A DNA stretch of 64,000 nucleotides from assembly GCA_951812925.1 (NCBI GenBank), contig OX638369.1:62758228-62822227 (forward strand), given 5' to 3'. This document shows, in pieces, positions 47,065 to 58,539 of this stretch. This DNA comes from Calliopum simillimum. Lineage: Eukaryota; Arthropoda; Insecta; Diptera; Lauxaniidae. Both the position numbers and the translations under genes were made by a program. The notes below the pieces were generated by a model that saw only the letters and a list, made by a program, of their open reading frames with translations, was not told the origin of the DNA and did not search any database. The first letter of the stretch is position 1, and each line of letters begins with the position of its first letter.

Positions 47065-47628
47065 GGAAATAATAAAATAGTTCTGTTGCTTGTGACAGAT
47101 GCTGCAGCCTACATGGCAATAGCTGGAGACCATTTAAAATTGTTTTATGCGAATTTGATTCATTTGACCTGCGCAGCTCATGGATAACATCGATTGGCGG
47201 GAACGATAAGAAATAATTTTAAATTATTCAACAAATTAATATCGTCTGTAAATAAAATTTTTCGCAAGGCTCCACTCCGGATTCAATTACATCGGGAAAA
47301 GTTACCCAATGTTCCTTTGCCCCCTGAGCTAATACTCACTAGATGGGGAACTTGGCTGGAAGTAGCATTATTTTTTAATGCAGGGCATTTAAATGAAATT
47401 AAAGATGTTATCTGGCAACTCGACCAGAACGATGCAAAAGCTAAAGCAAGATCAGTTATCGGAAAACCTCAGCTCTTTGCAGATCACGCATACGTGAAAG
47501 CACATTTTGGATTTTTTTCGGAAATTATTAAAAAACTGGAGACAAGAGAGGTTATGCTTTCTTATTCATTGGCATTGATAAATGAAGTTAAAAAAGCTGT
47601 GGAAAAAATCAAAGGAAAAGACGGTTAA
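47065..47628 (+). pseudogene. hAT transposase relic, central part
   Basis: Reads LLVTDAAAYMAIAGD, then LIHLTCAAHG, an in-frame TAA (47,185), HRLAGTIRNNF, LPPELILTRWGTWLEVALFF, a second in-frame TAA (47,626), and meets the LTR element at 47,633. The VTDAAAYM and LTCAAHGLHR-like blocks and the TRWGTWLE block are typical of a CGBP1-like hAT group common in insect genomes (family name from memory). The frame runs on across the LTR insert into the piece at 55,770. The N-terminal BED finger and first catalytic block are missing. Confidence 0.7.
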
Positions 47629-47632
47629 ATAT

Positions 47633-49071
47633 TGTGAGGAACAAATAAGTTCCCAATTTGCACCATATATTTTCATGATACAGCCCCGTCAAAACAACGC
47701 CAACAACAACAGGAGCAACAAGGGGAAAAAATCAGAAACGCCACTAGAACAACCCCCAGCAATAACAAAACAAAATAACAACAATAACAACAACAACCAC
47801 CATAGAAGTAACAAAAACCTACAACAACAACAATAGCTGAAACAACATCAATAGCAGAAACAACAACAATAGCAGAAACAACAACAATAGCAGAAACAAC
47901 AACAATAGCAGAAACAACAACCATAACAGAAACAACAAAAATAGCAGAAACAACAACCATAAGAAAAACAACAACAACAGGCACTCCAGTAACAACATCA
48001 CCAACAGTAACAACATCACCAACAGTAACAACATCACCAACAGTAACAACATCACCAACAGTAACAACATCACCAACAGCAACAACAACAAAACCTCATA
48101 GCAACAGCAGTCAATAAAATCAACAGCCACTGCAAACATAAAATGCAACAATATCAGCTTAAAACCGGTTTGACGAGCTTGCAGCAGAACCCCATAGCAA
48201 CAGCGGTAAATAAAAACCAAACACAATTAGCAGCAGCATCATGTGACGTGTGCAGAAAACCGGTTTGACGAGTTTACCGTTAATCCACAGCTGTACGTGC
48301 AAATTGGTTTGTAATAAATACAGCGGCAACAGTGGCAGAGGGATCAGTCTCGGAGTATTCATAGGCGCGTCAACACGTAGAGTTTTTTTTAAAAAAAGTT
48401 TGAAACATCACGGTCAAAAGTACAGTGCGCGTCGTCGAAGTGACATCGTATTTACCCTGCAAGTGAACAACATAGTGGAAATAACTAAGGATCAGAGTGG
48501 AGAAGACAAGGCAGCCACCCAGGACTCAGATTCAGGTAAGGGAACGATTTTCCAAAAGAGTAAAGGAAGCAAATATAGATTGGTGGTTGAAATATATTAT
48601 TTATCTGATCAATCGAATCGCTGTGGGTATCCCACCGTTGGTTGTGACTGATAACGATATTTTTCTGCCACTGCATATATTTGTAGCCCTAAGACGTAGG
48701 AGAATTGGAGCCGTGTGGCCTGCTTGGTTGCACAATTGAATCGCTGTGGATCTCCCACCGATAATTGAGCTTGCAAGCTGGTTATCGCGACTAGTCCAAC
48801 TACGAATCCGGAGGTTTTGACGTCTCGCGCCTGAAATCTGAAACTTGGAAGTTGTCAGAGAAGCTTCATGGAGGTTTTGGAGACCAATCTAAAACGAAAA
48901 GGCAGACAGCAGAAAATTTAGAGTCCCACAAAAATAAATATTTTTGTAACGAGAAAGATATAAATAAAACGCAAGAATTGAAAAGTGAAATTTACAAGTT
49001 TTCCAATTTCTTCTAACGAAACGCCTGGACAATCCGGCGAGCATCACCCCGGCAACAGAAAGTTCGTTACA
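47633..49071 (+). repeat. 5' LTR, 1,439 bp
   Basis: Begins TGTGAGGAACAAATAAG and ends AAAGTTCGTTACA (TG...CA type). A CAA-rich 5' third carries two 18-bp tandem arrays. A plausible start site lies at 48,344-48,350 (TCAGTC, initiator-like) with ATAAATA at 48,313-48,319 about 30 bases upstream. AATAAA occurs near 48,931 and 48,962, so polyadenylation signals are available in R/U5. Confidence 0.9.
47826..48077 (+). repeat. 18-bp VNTRs in the 5' LTR
   Basis: AACAATAGCAGAAACAAC-like units (about eight, 47,826-47,965) and five exact AGTAACAACATCACCAAC units (47,988-48,077). The 3' LTR has about three and one. Nine fewer 18-bp units (162 bp) explain practically all of the 163-bp length difference between the LTRs. 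Confidence 0.85.
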
Positions 49072-49073
49072 AA

Positions 49074-49091
49074 TGGCGCCCGAGCAGGGAC
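49074..49091 (+). promoter_or_regulatory. Primer-binding site, tRNA-Lys type
   Basis: TGGCGCCCGAGCAGGGAC follows the LTR after two bases. It is one base from the well-known 18-nt complement of tRNA-Lys(UUU) used by many retroelements. The tRNA identity is by similarity only. Confidence 0.75.
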
Positions 49092-49287
49092 TCTAAGATA
49101 AGAAAAGCAGAGAAAGCCTAATTACGAGAAAACTTTCCAGCAAAAAAAACCAGAGGCGGGAAAACCCAAATCTCCCCTAAACACTAAGATGAAGAAACCT
49201 GACAGCAATCAAGGTTCCCGAAGAGAAAAATTAACAAACGTCAAGCACAGGTGAAAGTGAAAAGTGGAAAAAAAAAACAGCAGCGTC

Positions 49288-50319
49288 ATGACTCTGAAAA
49301 CATCCTGGGTTTATACCCTAGACAAAACGGAGATAATCCAGTACTGCGAGGAATTTGGGTTGCTCACGACGTGACAATACGCATGACAAAGATGAAGAAA
49401 ACCGCCTAACAGAGCTGCAGAAAAGGCACACTCGTGCTTCTTCGCCATCAGCCATAGCTAAACGCACGGGGGAGGAGAAAACCCACGTCCCGGAAATAAT
49501 TACACGGATGCACACGAGCCTGAACTCAGCAGAGCCTCATCATCACGTGCCGAACCCGTGGAAGCTACGGATAGTTCGCATCACCAAGTTAAAGACAAGA
49601 TAAGAATATGGTCTATAAAGTTTAATGGCCATAAAGGTCCTATCGAATTACTAACGATACGTTGCCAAGACCCATGCCAGAACTATTGCAGGAGAAGGCC
49701 TTAATGTGGCTAAGAAATAACAACAAACAATCGAAATCGTGGACAGACTTCAAAAACGACTTTATACTATTTTTCCTGCCAAGTCGATACTTCAAGCGTC
49801 TTGAAGATGATATCCGCCAGCGCAAATAGAGGGCAGTGAGTGCTTCATTTTGTGCTCGAGATTCAAAATTTGATGCATGTAAGTTTCACCGAGGATCAAA
49901 AAGTGGAGCGAATTTATCGAAATAGTGCAACAAACCTTCAGCTCTACGTCAAACGGAAGGACTTCGAGGACTTGGACCAGCTCATAGCATTAGGCGAAGA
50001 ATTTGAATATCTGCATCAGGCGAATAATCCAACAAGAGCTTCACAAGCACGTGGTCGCACGGAGCAGAATCGTGTGTCCAGCATACCACAAAATTTCGCA
50101 GCCCAAACGATAGACCCCAGAACAGCCTGCCGTCGATGCGGACAGAATGGTCACATGGCAAGAAATTGTCGAAATCGGCAAATATACTTTTGTTGGGAAT
50201 GTGGCCGACAGAATATCCGATCAGTAGAGTGTTGTTGGCGTTCGGGAAACGAGGAAGGACTTCGTCGAGAGCGAGGAGCGGCGGAGACCCAGCCGTCATC
50301 CCATCCTCAGAATCAATAA
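49288..50319 (+). pseudogene. gag polyprotein relic with zinc knuckle
   Basis: Starts MTLKTSWVYTLDKTE at 49288. Frame changes near 49,368 and 49,600 and a stop near 49,828 interrupt it. Legible parts: WSIKFNGHKGPIE (about 49,610), KSWTDFKNDF and LPSRYFKRLEDDI (about 49,735-49,815, capsid-like), EDQKVERIYRNS, and a CCHC knuckle CRRCGQNGHMARNC at about 50,129 followed by a second Cys pair (CWEC). The protein would have packaged element RNA. Ends at the stop at 50,317-50,319. Confidence 0.75.
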
Positions 50320-50359
50320 AAGAAATTCGCTACGACAACACCAACCTGCTTGCATGAGT

Positions 50360-53300
50360 TGAGGTAGAGGGGCACATCGTTTCAGCAACCATTGACACGG
50401 AAGCCACGCGGAGTTTCGTAAATGTTCATTTCGTTCAAGAAATGAATTTGGGAAATTTTATTTTGCCTTGCACGAAGGAAGTCAAATTGGCGGACGGCAG
50501 TAGAGTCCAGGTACGTGAAACCGTTCGATTTGATGTCAGACTTGGAGCAGCCTAAGTATTTTTGGAATGCTTGATTATGCCGGATGCTAAGGACCCTTTA
50601 TTGTTAGGGATGGACTTCCGAGCGCAAGCAAGGGCAATATTTACTCAGTTACAACCAGTGCTGGAGGCAACAAAATATGTATGAACCAGAAATCAACTCG
50701 ATGGGTGTCAATGAGAGCCCTACCGCGAACGTTTCAACGACAACAGATATCAAGTATCCGACAATCATAGAAGATCTATCTGAGAACGAGCCCACGAGAG
50801 TTCAAACATTCCTGGAGTGAGTGATCCGTTCTTTCGACGAAGTCAAAGGACCATCTACCATTGCTACCCACAATATTGTGATGAAGGACGATAGACCTAT
50901 CAAACAAAGATATTATCCACAGAATCCTGCCATGCAAGCAGTAATCAACGAACAGGTGGATGATCTACTACAGAAAAACTGCATTGAACCATCGAAGGGT
51001 CCTTACAGTGCACCTGTTGTGTTAGTCCCTAAAGGAGAAGGATGGAGATTGTGCATCGATTATCGACAGTTAAACTCTCGCCTAGACGAGTACCCGTTAC
51101 CAAGAATCAATTACATCCTGGAAAACTTAAGAGGAGCAAAGTATATTAGTAGTATCGATCTCAAAAGTGGTTACTGGCAAATTGCAATGTACCCAGACAG
51201 CAGAAAATCTACAGCGTTCACAGTACCCGGAAGGGGCTTATTTCAGTGGCGAGTCATGCCTTTTTGGTTGCACTCTGCCCCAGCTACGTTCCAGAGAGCT
51301 CTGGATAGCGTAATAGGACCAGAGAGCTCTGGATAGCGTAATAGGACCAGAGCTAGCCCCGAGGGCCTTCGAAAATTTGCAGTTACTAAAAGAGGTTTTT
51401 AGACGACTACGTGCAGAAAATTTGTGCATTAACAAAGAAAAGTGCCAGTTCCTGAGAAAAGGGTTGAAATATTTGGGCACGTGGTAACCCCCGAAGGAAC
51501 AAAAACTGACCCTGGTAAAGTAAGCGCAATTCAAGCACTAGTGGCGCCAACGAACGTAATAGCTATCCGTCGTTTCTTGGGCATGGCCTCATGGTATCGA
51601 CGATTTGTGCCGAACTTTGCTGAAGTGCCAAAACCCTTAACTGCTCTGTTAAAAAAGGGAAAACATTGGAAGTGGAGCCAAGAACAAGAAGAGGCTTTCG
51701 AAACATTGAAAAAACGTCTTACTGAAGCACCAATTTTAGCCTGCCCGGACTTTTCACAGATGTTCACTCTTCAAACGGATGCAAGCGATTGTGGTCTTGG
51801 CGCCGTATTGACCCAGGAAATAGATAACGAGGAGAAGGTTATAGCTTATGCAAGCCGATCGCTGAATCCAGCGGAGAAAAACTACACAGCTATTGAAAAA
51901 GAGTGTCTAGCGATTATCTGGGGCATTCGCAAAATGAGGCCATATCTCGAAGGGTATCACTTTAAAGTCATCACCGATCATCTCGCTTTAAAATGGTTGA
52001 ACTCCAACGAAAGCCCATCTGGAGGATTGGCTCGCTGGGCACTAGAATTGCAGCAATATACTTTTGAGGTGGAATACCGCCGTGGCCGATTAAACGCCGT
52101 GGCCGATGGACTATCACGAGAACCGCAGGAAGTACTCCTTCAAATCACGGACACCTCGGACATGGAAGAACGATGCTCGTGGAAGGAAAAGCGTATGGCC
52201 GAAGTCCAAGCAAATCCTGAGAAGTTCGCGGGCTACCACATTGAAGGTTCCCAGTTATACCGGCACATTCCAATTCGTACTGGAGACGGGGAAACCAACC
52301 CATGGAAACTTTGCATCCCTAAGCCACAGCGAAAGAGGGTACTTTTTGAAAACCACGATAGCCCATCAGCGGGGCAAATGGGTATAAGGAAAACTTGCGC
52401 CCGAATCTACCAAAGATATTACTGGCCAGGTATGTCTAGGGATATACGCAGATATGTCCTACACTGTGAGTCTTGCCGGAAATATAAAGAAAGCCAACAA
52501 AAACCCGCAGGAAAAATGTTCACCCAGATACCAGAAGAGCCGTGGTCTATCGTATGGGAACACAGTTTTGTTGGTCCTTTTCGATAAATGGACGGAGTTA
52601 ATCCCCATGAGGAAAGCTTCGATTGAGAGTTTGAAAAGGCATTCCGAGAGCGTATCATCGGCAGATGTGGGGTTCCCAAAGTTTTTGTGACGGACAACGG
52701 TTCCCAATTTACGAGCAGAGTGTTTCAACGTTTTTTGAACGAGAACGGAGTGAGGCAACAATTCACCGCTCCGTATACACCGCAAGAGAATCCAACAGAA
52801 TGAGCAAATCGCACCGTCAAAAGGATTATCGCACAGGTTTCTGGTGAAGATCAACGCAAGTGGGACAACTTGTCCCTAAGATATCACTTGCGATAAATTC
52901 AAGTGCTTCAGACTCAACTTCCGTTTCGCCCCCATTATTGGTACAAGGACGCGAGCCACGGTTGCCACACAACTTGTACGATGAACGAACGTTGGGACAG
53001 GGAGAAGCCCAGAAACACCAGAGGGTAAAGCGAGCCGTCTGAAAGAGGTTTTCGAAATCGTACCAGCAAGTTTGGGGAAAGCAGCTATAGACCAGGCACG
53101 AAATTACAATCTTCGAAGACGGCAGTGGGCGCCTAAGGTGGGAGATATGGTACTAGTGAAACAACACCACCTCTCAAAAGCGATCGATGGGCTTAGCGCA
53201 AAGCTTGCACCAAAGTTTGACGGGCCGTTTCGGGTAGCTGGCTTCATTTCGGCCGTAATTGTGCAGCTCGAGAAAGAGAGAAAGCACGCTGGACCCGGAA

Positions 53301-53374
53301 GAAAATCTAGTAGGAGAGCTCACATCCGCGATTTGAGGCTTTTCCTTAGCCCAGAAAACCTAGGCCTCACATAG
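50360..53374 (+). pseudogene. pol relic: protease, RT, RNase H, integrase
   Basis: Protease: ATIDTEATRSFVN (about 50,385; the active-site DTG reads DTE), then LLLGMDF. RT: RLCIDYRQLN, SSIDLKSGYWQI and GLFQWRVMPF (51,047-51,266); just after, a 22-bp direct duplication (51,297-51,345 region) and a deletion remove the catalytic YLDD block. RNase H: LQTDASDCGLGAVLTQ, IEKECLAIIWGI, VITDHLALKWL, NAVADGLSR (51,770-52,120), intact. Integrase: zinc finger with LHCESCRKYKE (about 52,458), VFVTDNGSQFTSRVFQRF (52,682) and PYTPQENPTE (52,771); the first catalytic Asp position appears changed (WEHSFVGPF). A C-terminal KFDGPFRV module ends at 53,374. Several stops from 52,585 on. Confidence 0.85.
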
Positions 53375-53520
53375 GAAAAAAAAAAAAAAAATAAAATTAA
53401 AATATATACCGTTACAGTTCAAAACACAATTTAACACAGATCGTCATTCCGAATTATAATACGCAAGTGACAACATCGCGAATTTCCAAAGTAAGAACAA
53501 AAAAAAAAAAAATAATTAAA

Positions 53521-54264
53521 ATGACAACTAATGCCGGCGGTGCTCTTTTTGTGTTCCCAGGAAGCTACCTACGGTTGGGTCCTGGACGGTTCCTCGACGA
53601 TCTGGTGATCGATTTTTAGGGGAAGTGGCTGCTGGAGCAGGTCAACGTGGTCACTTCTATAGACGGCTAATCGGAGATGGGTCACTGGATCCCCTACAGC
53701 ATCACCAGAGGGTAGCACGCTGGACACCTCTTCACAAAAGACCTTATTTTTGTTCCCGTAAACGAACAGCAGCATTGGTTCCTGGTGGTGGTACGGAATC
53801 CAGGAGGAATCCGTGGAGGGCCGACTGGGGCCGAGATTATTGTACTGGACTCACTCGCCATTAAACGCCGAGATCACGTCATTCCCGCCATAAGGGAGTA
53901 TTTGGCGGTGGAATATGTGACCAGGATGGCAGGAACGGGACAAGAGTTCGCCAAAGTCTCGGTCCCAGGATATTGTGCCACCGTACCGCAGCGAGAGAAC
54001 GGGTTCGACTGTGGCATCTTCCTGCTTCATTTCATGGCGCTCCTGGTTAAGCAGCCTAACAAAAACCTTCATGAGGCAAAAGAGTGGTTTCAACTACAGA
54101 AGACCGTGGTGAAACGAGGAAAAATCGTCAGCCTGATGGAGGCATTAACTTGGGACAAGCGCCGCCTGCCACTGCCCTCATCAGCCAGCACTTCCCCGTT
54201 TCAAGCCCAGAACCGGAACACGAGAAGTAGGAGGTCGAGCCACCCTAAAAGCGTCAACGATTAG
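53521..54264 (+). pseudogene. ORF3: Ulp1/SENP-like cysteine protease domain in env position
   Basis: Begins MTTNAGGALFVFPG at 53521 and continues GRFLDDLVIDF, the 'FL(D/N)D..IDF' opening of C48 peptidases, then an in-frame TAG. After frame changes (near 53,625 and 53,725) comes KDLIFVPVNEQQHWFLVVV with the catalytic His codon at 53,773, IIVLDSLA with Asp at 53,848, and VPQRENGFDCGIF with the oxyanion Gln and catalytic Cys (codon 54,010). The tetrad order H-D-Q-C and spacing match Ulp1/SENP proteases, which cut SUMO-like tags. The C-terminus is Arg/Ser-rich. It lies between integrase and the polypurine tract, inside the LTRs. Dead in this copy. Whether it came from a host gene or another transposon is unknown. 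Confidence 0.8.
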
Positions 54265-54475
54265 CCAGCGAAGAAACTGAGGAACCGGCCCAAGCAGCAA
54301 GCGACAGTAAGAGGGTGATGATGTACAGCACAATTGAATAATGCCGAGCACACTGTACTGCCGGAAACCCTCCAAGTATGCGTTGAGCGCATGGTTAAAC
54401 TCGTGAATGTGAAGAAACCAAAGCTTCGGTACCGCATAATCATCACCAGGACATCAATCGTTCTCAAGCCCCGCT

Positions 54476-54489
54476 GAGAAGGGAGGTGA
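54476..54489 (+). promoter_or_regulatory. Polypurine tract
   Basis: GAGAAGGGAGGTGA sits immediately before the 3' LTR start TGTGAGG, the expected position of the plus-strand primer. Confidence 0.75.
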
Positions 54490-55765
54490 TGTGAGGAACA
54501 AATAAGTTCCCAATTTGCACCCACATATTTTCATGCTACAGCCCCGTCAAAACAATGCCAACAACAACAGGAGCAACAACGGGGAAAAAATCAGAAACAC
54601 CACTAGAACAACCCCTGCAATTACAAAACCAAATAACAACAATAACAACAACAACCACCATAGAAGTAACAAAAACCTACAACAACAACAATAGCTGAAA
54701 CAACATCAATAGCAGAAACAACAACCATAACAAAAACAACAACAGGCACTTCAGTAACAACATCACCAACAGCAACAACAACAAAACCTCATAGCAACAG
54801 CAGTCAATAAAATCAACAGCCACTGCAAACATAGAATGCAACAATATCACCTTAAAACCGGTTTGACGAGTTTGCAGCAGAACCCCATTGCAACAGCGGT
54901 AAATAAAAACCAAATACAATTAGCAGCAGCATCATGTGATCGTGTGCAGAAAACCGGTTTGACGAGTTTACCGTTAATCCACAGCTGTACGTGCAAATTG
55001 GTTTGTAATAAATACAGCAGCAACAGTGGCAGAGGGATCAGTCTCGGAGTATTCATAGGCGCGTCAACACGTAGAGTTTTTTTTAAAAAAAGTTTGTAAC
55101 ATCACGGTCAAAAGTACAGTGCGCGTCGTCGAAGTGACATCGCATTTACCCTGCAAATGAACAACATAGTGGAAATAACCAAGGATCAGAGTGGAGAAGA
55201 CAAGGCAGCCACCCAGGATTCAGATTCAGGTAAGGGAACGATTTTCCAAAAGAGTAAGGGAAGCAAATATAAATTGGTGGTTGAAATATATTATTTATCT
55301 GATCTATCGCATCGCTGTGGGTATCCCACCGTTGGTTGTGACTGATAACGATATTTTTCTGCCACTGCATATATTTGTAGCCCTAAGACGTAGGAGAATT
55401 GGAGCCGTGTGGCCTGCTTGGTTGCACAATTGAATCGCTGTGGATCTCCCACCGATAATTGAGCTTGCAAGCTGGTTATCGCGACCAGTCCAACTACAAA
55501 TCCGGAGGTTTCGACGTCTCGCGCCTGAAATCTGAAACTTGGAAGTTGTCAGAGAAGCTTCATGGAGGTTTTGGACACCAATCTAGAACGAAAAGGCAGA
55601 CAGCAGAAAATTTAGAGTCCTACAAAAATAAATATTTTTGTAACGAGAAAGATATAAATAAAACGCTAGAATTGAAAAGTGAAATTTACAAGTTTTCTAA
55701 TTTCTTCTAACGAAACGCCTGGACAATCCGGCGAGCATCACTCCGGCATCAGAAAGTTCGTTACA
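54490..55765 (+). repeat. 3' LTR, 1,276 bp
   Basis: Same start and end as the 5' LTR, with about nine fewer 18-bp units. Remaining differences are scattered single bases (for example CAGCAGCAACAG against CAGCGGCAACAG near 55,015). Confidence 0.9.
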
Positions 55766-56036
55766 ATATATCAAGATAAATTAGATAACGTTTTGGAGAG
55801 AAATCCTGGATATATGTAATTTCATTACAAAAATTAATGACGTATTGAATGGTGTGACAACAAATGAAATTACTGCTGTCAGTCCAGAAGTAGTGTCTAA
55901 ATACAAGTACGCCCTTAGATTTAGAAAGATAATTTTTTGCTTACAAAATGATTCTTACAGATAAACGGCAAAATTTTACTTCAGAAAATTTTGACAAAAT
56001 ATTTATTATTTACTGTCAACTGAATTACAATCAATA
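55766..56036 (+). pseudogene. hAT transposase relic, C-terminal dimerisation part
   Basis: YQDKLDNVLERNPGY continues the frame broken at 47,632 once one copy of ATAT and the LTR element are subtracted. Further on, in shifting frames: VVSKYKYAPLDLER and MILTDKRQNFTSENF, fitting the hAT C-terminal dimerisation motif (the usual FKYAP...VERSFS...L...R..L..EN pattern). At least two frame changes. Confidence 0.65.
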
Positions 56037-57352: not shown

Positions 57353-58216
57353 GAGTAGATCGGGGTAATGTCGTGCAGGGGGTAATATCGTGCACGGCTG
57401 TTTTAGCCCAAAGAATTGAATGATTTACCAACTGTTCGTATATAATACTAGCAATTTTCACCAGTTCGTCTCTACAGAGTAACCTTTTTTTCAAAACGCA
57501 CGCTTTCGGGACGATAAAAGTGTTTTTTTATCGGGTCAGAAAAATGATTTTCCTTCCGGGAAAATATACCAGGTAAGCGTTTTCTGAAACGAAATATCCT
57601 GCCAAAGAAAAGAAGTATTTGGTTTTCGAAAAAAATTTTGGGCTTCACCGAGTTATCGAAGTTGACCTTTAAAACGACCATTGGGGTAATGTCGTGCACA
57701 TTCACTTACACAAACACAATTTCTCGCTGCACAAATGTTGTTACACATGGATGTAACCAATGAAATTATCTTTCGATCGGATGCTTACTCGTTGCATTCG
57801 CTTGAGATGTACGGCTTTACGAGCATGCCAAAGTTGAGTGCACGACATTGCCCCGTTCTACTCTACACAACATATTATGTACTTCACACTTGTATAATAA
57901 TGAATAAATACATGATAATGCTAAATCTAAACTAATAGAACCACTACCTATCATTTCTCACACATTTTGGTACCTTTACTACACTCGGAAAACAATACAC
58001 GACATTACCCCACAAATTTTGAGGGGGGTAATATCGTGCACATTTTTTTTTTCTTCACTTACACAAACACAATTTCTTGCTACACAAATGTTGTTACACA
58101 TGGATGTAACCAATGAAATTATCTTTCGATCGGATGCTTACTCGTCGCATTCGCTTGAGATGTACGGCTTTACGAGCATGTCAAAGTTGAGTGCACGACA
58201 TTGCCCCGTTCTACTC
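57353..58216. mobile_element. Family H element, TA-flanked, with internal duplication
   Basis: Ends GAGTAGATCGGGGTAATG and CATTGCCCCGTTCTACTC, flanked by TA (57,351-57,352 and 58,217-58,218). GGTAATRTCGTGCA or its inverse occurs about seven times (57,364; 57,382; 57,685; 57,838; 57,993; 58,026; 58,193). A ~190-bp block with CACATGGATGTAACCAATGA and GATCGGATGCTTACTCG occurs twice, about 360 bases apart, the second time ending at the right terminus. Size, TA target and repeated end motif recall family C. Non-coding. Confidence 0.75.
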
Positions 58217-58539
58217 TACTATGAAACGATGAAGAAGCTATTTTCATTAGATTTATAGTTTAGGAGATATCTTCTCTTAAAAATGCACATTTCTATATCT
58301 GTGCCAAAGCTTTTTCTCAAAATGGGATGGGAGCATTTTAATGAAACTTTAGACAATGATGCACATTAGCATGGAATGAAGAATGGACTAAGTATCAGCT
58401 TTGTAATTTCCCACTGGAAGGCGTGGCTTCTCCCTAAATTTTGAATTAAATCTGGGAATTATATAAAATATTTTTATTTTTGAACGAATCAACGCAATAA
58501 TAAATTTTCGCTATAACGCATCGATGCAACATTGGTCCT

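What the first reader, a model, noticed from the sequence alone, without database searches (positions are those of the whole stretch)
53521..54264. Gypsy-group element with a Ulp1/SENP-like protease ORF where env would sit
Seen: an opening FLDDLVIDF, then QQHWFLVVV, IIVLDSL and PQRENGFDCGIF in the right order, between integrase and polypurine tract and inside matching LTRs. Known: Ulp1/SENP (peptidase family C48) uses H-D-Q-C with exactly these blocks; such domains are known from plant Mutator-like elements, and I do not recall them as a standard third ORF of insect gypsy elements. Inference: the element may have captured a deSUMOylase-like enzyme to act on SUMO-dependent silencing (the piRNA nuclear pathway is SUMO-linked in flies) or on its own proteins. 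This copy is dead, so intact relatives are needed.
Basis: partly seen in the sequence, partly recalled or inferred. Interest (0 to 1): 0.9.

Follow-up and report, generated by a model that had tools for sequence, protein, structure and literature searches.

The report
Retrotransposon families carrying SUMO-protease gene
Several related virus-like jumping-gene families in this animal genome carry, where retroviruses keep their envelope gene, a gene for an enzyme resembling those that strip the SUMO tag from proteins; natural selection has preserved it, and it may help the element escape the host's SUMO-dependent silencing.

Summary
Window 47633-55765 is a degraded Ty3/gypsy LTR element (4-bp target duplication, tRNA-Lys primer site, gag and pol remnants). 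Between integrase and 3' LTR lies a Peptidase_C48 (Ulp1/SENP) ORF (Pfam 6.6e-18) with catalytic H, D, Q and C present, broken by three in-frame stops. It is no private insertion: I count 23 C48 loci of this kind in five families (A-E) of the same genome; 13 of the 18 read at length lie beside gag/pol of this lineage. One relative has gag, pol and a 487-aa ORF3 all open and nearly identical LTRs. The C48 part shows dN/dS 0.11-0.62 in 16 of 16 within-family comparisons and third-codon-position excess in all five families. For families A, C and D the best solved match is SENP7. The elements look Osvaldo-like, not errantivirus-like. Printed precedents found are DNA transposons (Ginger, Mutator-like, Crypton); my searches of an open-access library showed none in an LTR retrotransposon. 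Anti-silencing function is plausible but untested; enzyme activity is untested; two families carry Asn at the catalytic Asp; some copies have lost the domain.

The parts
47629..47632 (.). target site duplication ATAT (5' copy)
   Evidence: read directly; same four bases after the 3' LTR
47633..49071 (+). 5' LTR (TGTGAGG...GTTACA)
49074..49091 (+). primer binding site TGGCGCCCGAGCAGGGAC
   Evidence: exact complement of the 3' end (plus CCA) of a tRNA-Lys(TTT) gene of the same genome
49498..50298 (+). gag remnant; zinc knuckle in the open piece 49840-50316
50821..51333 (+). pol: reverse transcriptase piece
   Evidence: Pfam RVT_1 4.8e-16
51442..52584 (+). pol: RNase H and integrase zinc-binding (H2C2) piece
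   Evidence: Pfam RT_RNaseH 2e-40, Integrase_H2C2 1.4e-20
53072..53371 (+). pol: integrase C-terminal piece (SH3_Tf2-1-like, 27.4 bits, below the 30-bit cut-off)
   Evidence: also matched by the pol end of an open relative
53521..53616 (+). ORF3, first C48 block (GPGRFLDDLVIDF), ended by a TAG stop
   Evidence: in the C1 copy this block and the His block lie in one open frame (L023:127-462, Pfam C48 1.5e-9)
53716..54264 (+). ORF3, catalytic C48 blocks with His, Asp, Gln and Cys
   Evidence: Pfam 6.6e-18; best solved relative SENP7 3.5e-17
54391..54477 (+). short open piece MVKLVNVKKPKLRYRIIITRTSIVLKPR before the polypurine tract; possible equivalent of the C-terminal tail of other families' ORF3 (compared by eye only)
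   Evidence: tails of other families
54478..54489 (+). polypurine tract
   Evidence: read directly
54490..55765 (+). 3' LTR; 36 substitutions in 1272 aligned sites against the 5' LTR (K2P 0.029) plus 169 gapped columns
   Evidence: the aligned spans started and ended 1-2 bases off these limits
55766..55769 (.). target site duplication ATAT (3' copy)
   Evidence: read directly

Best explanation
A lineage of Osvaldo-like Ty3/gypsy retrotransposons carries, as a third ORF downstream of integrase, a SENP/Ulp-type (C48) SUMO-protease gene, in three families closest to SENP7, and selection maintains it. Shown: the domain, its place in the element, an open copy, retained catalytic residues in three families, purifying selection in five families. 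[quoted passage not shown] The SIM-like motif just before the domain in families C and D would help bring it to SUMO-rich chromatin.
For: C48 in the window at 6.6e-18 and at 23 loci in five families by my count. A relative at C3:48.18 Mb has gag 408 aa, pol 1066 aa and ORF3 487 aa open, the ORF3 scoring C48 at 7.2e-24, with 1 substitution in 2643 aligned LTR sites. dN/dS 0.11-0.62 on the C48 part in 16 of 16 pairs, each p <= 0.024; third-position excess at p < 0.05 in 12 of the 15 pairs that aligned, flat in the LTR control. H-D-Q-C retained in A, B and C copies. SENP7 best for C, A and D. SIM-like motif at the same spacing before C48 in C and D. [quoted passage not shown] Panx needs SUMOylation to repress, and endogenous deSUMOylating enzymes cleave a SUMO-Panx fusion (PMC13195609); plant Vandal elements with a Ulp1-bearing VANC protein lift silencing of their own family (PMC13317346); Drosophila petrel piRNAs target a SUMO-protease gene, pirate (PMC9962485).
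Against: No activity, expression or small-RNA data. Families D and E have Asn instead of the catalytic Asp. Six family-C copies match only the ORF3 tail, so the domain is dispensable or can act in trans. Only 7 of the 34 C48 matches lie within 3 kb of a listed pol-end match (a capped list of 151), so most pol relatives listed have no C48 match beside them. Family B matches SENP1 better than SENP7 and family E matches only weakly. Outside the C48 part selection is less clear: ORF3 N-terminus of C against L034 has dN/dS 1.53 (p 0.80), C tail against L034 0.46 (p 0.23), B tail against L049 0.58 (p 0.20). A SIM-like match somewhere in the protein is not rare in shuffles (229 of 2000 for C, 55 of 2000 for the D piece of L032), and the D copy L037 does not match the same expression. 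The step from deSUMOylation to anti-silencing is inference.
Confidence: 0.5

Rival explanations
1. Same enzyme, but it acts on the element's own life cycle: it removes SUMO from Gag, integrase or the integration complex, or frees the DNA intermediate from SUMO-dependent repair, without touching piRNA silencing.
For: Ulp1 or OTU domains are fused to transposases in Ginger1, where the authors suggest a role in transposition and DNA repair (PMC2836005 passages); the ORF sits in an element that encodes its own integrase.
Against: Here it is a separate ORF, not fused to pol; SUMO sites on Gag or integrase were not looked for.
Confidence: 0.25
2. It is a SUMO-binding protein that has lost or does not need protease activity (a decoy or recruiter), at least in families D and E.
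For: Asn in place of the catalytic Asp in both D copies and all three E copies read, while the domain still evolves under constraint (E dN/dS 0.12 and 0.23, D 0.62).
Against: The Cys is kept in all five D and E copies and the Gln in four of five; families A, B and C have full H-D-Q-C; an Asn can serve in the triad of other cysteine proteases (recalled).
Confidence: 0.1
3. It is a protease for another ubiquitin-like tag (NEDD8, ubiquitin), as some C48-clan enzymes are.
For: SENP8-class enzymes share the fold but act on NEDD8 (recalled); family E is far from any solved SENP.
Against: Nearest solved relatives of A, C and D are SENP7, of B SENP1/5/2, all SUMO proteases (their specificity recalled); SENP8 scores far lower for C (best 1.3e-5) and is not listed for A, B or D.
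Confidence: 0.1
4. A passenger: a host C48 gene fragment caught by chance, of no use to the element.
For: Several copies lack it.
Against: Purifying selection in five families, open ORF in a very young copy, C48 downstream of pol in the families read.
Confidence: 0.03

Closest known systems
SENP6/SENP7 (Ulp2-class) SUMO proteases; the host's own SENP6/7-like gene at C4:112.29 Mb (L026)
   Same: SENP7 is the best solved-structure match for families A, C and D and for L026; YPxG...LND entry block and H-D-Q-C order
   Different: Encoded in an LTR element, as one open frame in family C, without the long insert inside the host catalytic domain, followed by an acidic/Ser-rich linker and a basic tail
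Osvaldo lineage of Ty3/gypsy (Osvaldo, Isis, Ulysses; Culex Osvaldo-like elements)
   Same: LTRs of 997-2055 bp and a tRNA-Lys primer site are given as its hallmarks in Culex (PMC3286476 passages); a blow-fly Isis-like element has 2.57-kb LTRs and 4-bp duplications (PMC3630058 passages)
   Different: In those passages the elements have one or two ORFs, and Isis an env; no C48 is mentioned. Whether the reported Isis env hides a C48 could not be checked, as the sequence was not at hand
Kaonashi/VANC-Ulp1 in plant Mutator-like (Vandal) elements
   Same: Ulp1 domain conserved in a mobile element, in a protein that lifts silencing of its own family (PMC13317346 passages)
   Different: DNA transposon of plants; Ulp1 is part of VANC, and what it does there is unknown according to the same passage
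Ginger1 and Crypton elements with Ulp1/C48
   Same: C48 domain in a mobile element; Ginger1 integrase is gypsy-related (PMC2836005 passages; PMC3212892 passages)
   Different: DNA transposons; in Ginger1 the C48 is fused to the transposase, not a separate ORF in an LTR element
Errantiviruses (gypsy clade) with env
   Same: Third ORF between integrase and 3' LTR
   Different: Their third ORF is an envelope protein (PMC12992720 passages); here Pfam finds only C48 above its cut-off

Membership tests
Peptidase C48 (Ulp1/SENP) | Pfam PF02902 above its cut-off (20.7 bits) | tested here: met
   window 65.8 bits; the C, D, B and E frames scanned 29.8-85.3 bits
Peptidase C48 (Ulp1/SENP) | catalytic His-Asp-Cys with oxyanion Gln (motif roles recalled) | tested here: met
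   H-D-Q-C in the window and C1 copies (A), three B copies and three C copies; H-N-Q-C in D and E, so not fully met there
Peptidase C48 (Ulp1/SENP) | Ulp1 fold | tested here: inconclusive
   single-sequence model of the window piece is useless (mean pLDDT 39.1); no fold search was made on it
Peptidase C48 (Ulp1/SENP) | cleaves SUMO | not testable with these tools
   needs biochemistry
SENP6/7 (Ulp2) subclass | closer to SENP6/7 than to SENP1/2/3/5 | tested here: inconclusive
   A, C and D best with SENP7; B best with SENP1; E weak
Ty3/gypsy LTR retrotransposon | LTRs, target duplication, primer site, gag zinc knuckle, RT, RNase H, integrase after RT | tested here: met
Osvaldo lineage | tRNA-Lys primer and long LTRs | tested here: met
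   exact 18-nt primer site in the window, L033, L038, L042 and L044; tRNA-Lys(TTT) gene with the matching 3' end; LTRs 1.3-1.4 kb in the window, about 2.8 kb in L042/L043
Osvaldo lineage | pol groups with Osvaldo in a tree | not tested
Errantivirus (env-bearing gypsy clade) | third ORF encodes an envelope glycoprotein | tested here: not met
   ORF3 of L042 matches only C48 above a Pfam cut-off
Ginger1 / Mutator Ulp1 elements | DNA transposon, C48 encoded with a transposase | tested here: not met
   LTRs, RT and a separate ORF3

The most novel reading that the evidence does not exclude
Animal LTR retrotransposons encode their own SENP6/7-type deSUMOylase as a retroviral-style accessory gene that disarms SUMO-dependent piRNA silencing, an arms-race weapon comparable with viral silencing suppressors; and the traffic went both ways, the cluster of single-frame C48 genes at C4:82.4-83.4 Mb being ORF3 genes taken over by the host.
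Probability: 0.3. Interest if true: 0.92.

Novelty: new variant of a known kind. Interest (0 to 1): 0.77.

Why it matters
Piwi-guided transcriptional silencing in flies runs through SUMO (Su(var)2-10, Panx), while transposon-encoded counter-measures against it are, as far as I recall, hardly known. A selectively maintained SUMO-protease ORF in a young LTR element gives a concrete candidate that can be tested: one catalytic Cys separates active from inactive protein. It also shows that the third-ORF slot of gypsy-type elements is not reserved for env, which bears on the annotation of 'env' in the Osvaldo lineage.

Tried and rejected
Protein database (about 5.8 billion sequences): two of three searches used, with the family-C ORF3 and with a nine-row alignment; no hit at E <= 0.001. 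This says little, since not even ordinary SENPs scored, so animal proteins may be poorly covered. Viral contigs: no relative of family-C ORF3. Spread beyond this one genome could therefore not be tested.

Structure: AlphaFold2 on the window piece alone gave pLDDT 39.1 and pTM 0.26; no fold search was run on it.

Single capture: a tree that holds the element C48 rows together apart from the host rows is rejected (AU p 0.003; 0.015 without the SENP1-like row), but branches are long; and if the tree is rooted on the SENP6/7-like gene, one capture plus host take-over of the cluster fits too. Direction and number of captures remain open.

Rejected: chance similarity, private insertion, passenger gene.

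First, cruder dN/dS run: C48 pieces within families gave 0.12-0.44; between families dS was saturated or nearly so; one pol piece (L042 against L034, 17 differences in all) gave 1.79, and the longer pol comparison gave 0.55.

Rows dropped: in the second trees B_L035 (decayed active site) and E_L030 (partial) were left out; B_L029 gave no DNA alignment; the C N-terminal region against L031 had no codons. One search printed pol matches only down to E 1e-12.

Full report
What is there. The window (G000:C2:62758228-62822227, in an unnamed 690-Mb assembly) holds at 47633-55765 a degraded LTR element: two LTRs flanked by ATAT on both sides, an 18-nt primer binding site at 49074-49091, gag remnant with zinc knuckle, RT, RNase H and integrase pieces, a purine tract, 3' LTR. 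The primer site is the exact complement of the 3' end (plus CCA) of a tRNA-Lys(TTT) gene of the same genome. The two LTRs differ by 36 substitutions in 1272 aligned sites (K2P 0.029) with 169 gapped columns.

The third ORF. Between integrase and 3' LTR, 53521-54264 encodes a Peptidase_C48 domain. The open part 53716-54261 scores 6.6e-18. His, Asp, Gln and Cys are present.

Not private. A genome-wide C48 search gave 34 matches, and searches with the ORF3 proteins of the window and of families B, C and D gave further places (family E was not used as a query). I count 23 C48 loci of ORF3 type: A 2 (window and C1:55.14 Mb), B 12, C 4, D 2, E 3. Family names are mine, and the count is by eye from those lists. 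Twenty-two of the 23 were read at least in part (not C4:40.59 Mb). Of the 18 for which about 7-20 kb were read, 13 have gag or pol of this lineage in the same or the adjoining stretch; the five without are L027, L028, L030, L031 and L036. Other C48 genes look like host genes: SENP1-like (C5:13.34 Mb), SENP6/7-like with an insert (C4:112.29 Mb), a C48 ORF at C3:11.44 Mb that I take for SENP8-like from memory, and a cluster on C4.

An open relative. At C3:48.18-48.19 Mb a family-C copy has gag 408 aa, pol 1066 aa (protease, RT, RNase H, integrase) and ORF3 487 aa, all open. Its LTRs differ by 1 substitution in 2643 aligned sites, with 9 gapped columns (about 0.17 kb at one LTR end not included), ATAT flanks both ends, and the primer site is identical to the window's. 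ORF3 begins 489 bases after the pol stop, so it probably needs its own message (spliced or subgenomic; inference). Its order is: SIM-like VIELSSEDE, C48 (7.2e-24), Ser/acidic linker, basic tail ending YRRFEKIGSQRYVISYNKKG.... Family D has VIHI(D/Y)SDTDE at the same distance from the YPxG entry block. Similar tails can be seen by eye in E and, less clearly, in A, B and D; no statistic was run on that likeness.

Selection. Comparing copies within families on the C48 part, dN/dS is 0.11-0.43 in B (9 pairs), 0.18-0.47 in C (3), 0.12-0.23 in E (2), 0.40 in A (1) and 0.62 in D (1); all 16 are below 1 with p <= 0.024. Pairs share a reference copy and include dead copies, which pulls values towards 1. 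Two pol controls in family C gave 0.55 and 0.56. Outside C48 most pieces are constrained too (B tail 0.21-0.58 in 8 pairs), but the ORF3 N-terminus of C against L034 gave 1.53 (p 0.80) and three further pieces were not significant (p 0.10-0.23). A check that does not use the other copy's frame, mismatches by codon position in DNA alignments, gave a third-position share of 0.40-0.68 in the 15 of 16 pairs that aligned, 12 of them at p < 0.05 and at least one in each family; the LTR control was 7/6/7.

Catalysis. H-D-Q-C is intact in the window and C1 copies (A), in L027, L024 and L025 (B), and in L042, L034 and L033 (C). Both D copies and two of three E copies read H-N-Q-C, the third E copy H-N-P-C. 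The remaining eight B copies read and the C copy L031 show a change at one or more of these places or do not cover them. So A-C look like proteases; D and E may be weak or non-catalytic.

Which SENP. Sequence search of solved structures puts SENP7 first for C (5.4e-21), A (3.5e-17) and D (5.1e-24), SENP1 first for B (7e-9; SENP7 6.6e-6), and only weak Ulp1-like and Ulp2 matches for E (2e-4, 3.1e-4). That SENP6/7 prefer poly-SUMO chains is recalled. In the trees A, B, D and the host SENP6/7-like gene fall on one side, and C, E and the C4 cluster on the other (99/98 and in the first tree; 94/93 without the SENP1-like row); the SENP1-like row joins B with 82/83 and 88/89, perhaps by long branches. 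A gag tree also groups C with E (99/98), so ORF3 and gag agree on that split. A tree holding the element rows together is rejected (p 0.003 and 0.015); whether this means two captures, or one capture and a later take-over by the host, I cannot say.

Loss. Six family-C copies match only ORF3 residues of about 390-487; the one read (L045) lacks most of ORF3. Another family-C copy has no real ORF3 match in the 2.2 kb after pol (L046), and a pol relative with a 1235-aa open frame none in 1.5 kb (L047). By eye, 7 of the 34 C48 matches lie within 3 kb of one of the 151 pol-end matches listed (150 of 1596 candidates were scored). C48 is thus an accessory trait of a minority of these elements.

How it most likely works. 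The nuclear Piwi pathway of flies silences elements through SUMO: Su(var)2-10 is a SUMO ligase tied to Piwi (PMC7272611, passages), and Panx needs SUMO on N-terminal lysines to repress, while deSUMOylating enzymes of the cell strip a fused SUMO from it (PMC13195609, passages). A SUMO protease made by the element while it is transcribed could break this step. The nearest working analogy is the plant Vandal VANC protein with a captured Ulp1 domain, whose family escapes silencing (PMC13317346, passages). That Drosophila piRNAs target a SUMO-protease gene (pirate; PMC9962485, one passage) would fit a conflict over SUMO proteases. None of this shows the function here.

Novelty. Ten full-text searches of an open-access library were run; eight bore on C48, Ulp1 or SUMO proteases in mobile elements, two on Osvaldo env and on SUMO in piRNA silencing. 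They showed Ulp1/C48 in Ginger, Mutator-like and Crypton DNA transposons (passages) and none in an LTR retrotransposon. I saw listings, some of them cut to 15-20 of up to 1,702 papers, and the passages named; I read no whole paper, and most listed papers were not opened. Subscription papers and Repbase entries are not covered, so a printed case may exist. The reported env of Isis (PMC3630058, passages) deserves a check.

Noticed in passing
G000:C4:82.43-83.41 Mb and C4:58.69-58.71 Mb (L002, L003, L006-L008 read); C2:95.07 Mb (L004): Eleven C48 matches in two groups on C4, each in one open frame of 220-300 aa, so probably intronless. The members read group with family C/E ORF3 (99/98), and five of them evolve under constraint (dN/dS 0.31-0.61 in 10 of 10 pairs); no gag or pol match was printed within 1.5 kb of the six loci read. 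Donor or domesticated descendants of ORF3.
   Followed up: partly
L041:4386-7604 (C4:27.11 Mb): A 1073-aa open frame with C48 near its C-terminus (1.1e-6) followed by a PHD-like cysteine pattern (by eye; not scored by Pfam), reminiscent of Ginger1 transposases with Ulp1 plus PHD; no transposase domain was scored.
   Followed up: partly
L045 (C1:104.12 Mb) and C4:43.70, C4:99.55, C1:36.16, C2:102.35, C3:58.27 Mb: Family-C copies that match only the ORF3 tail; four of them also share a 689-aa pol frame: a C48-less subfamily that seems to have spread. Only L045 was read.
   Followed up: partly
L024/L025 (C3:53.67-53.68 Mb): Two family-B C48 copies 6,991 bases apart in a tandem arrangement, 98.6% identical over 4.3 kb.
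   Followed up: no
window 47086-47632: Just 5' of the element a 33-aa piece has a weak DUF659 match (E 0.005, below cut-off) and the 144-aa ORF next to the LTR has no Pfam match; possibly an older transposase relict in which the element landed.
   Followed up: partly
window 57701-57866 and 58054-58219: A 166-base direct repeat pair, 98% identical, 353 bases apart.
   Followed up: no
L037, L032, L038, L030, L036: Asn replaces the catalytic Asp of the C48 triad in the five copies of families D and E that were read.
   Followed up: yes
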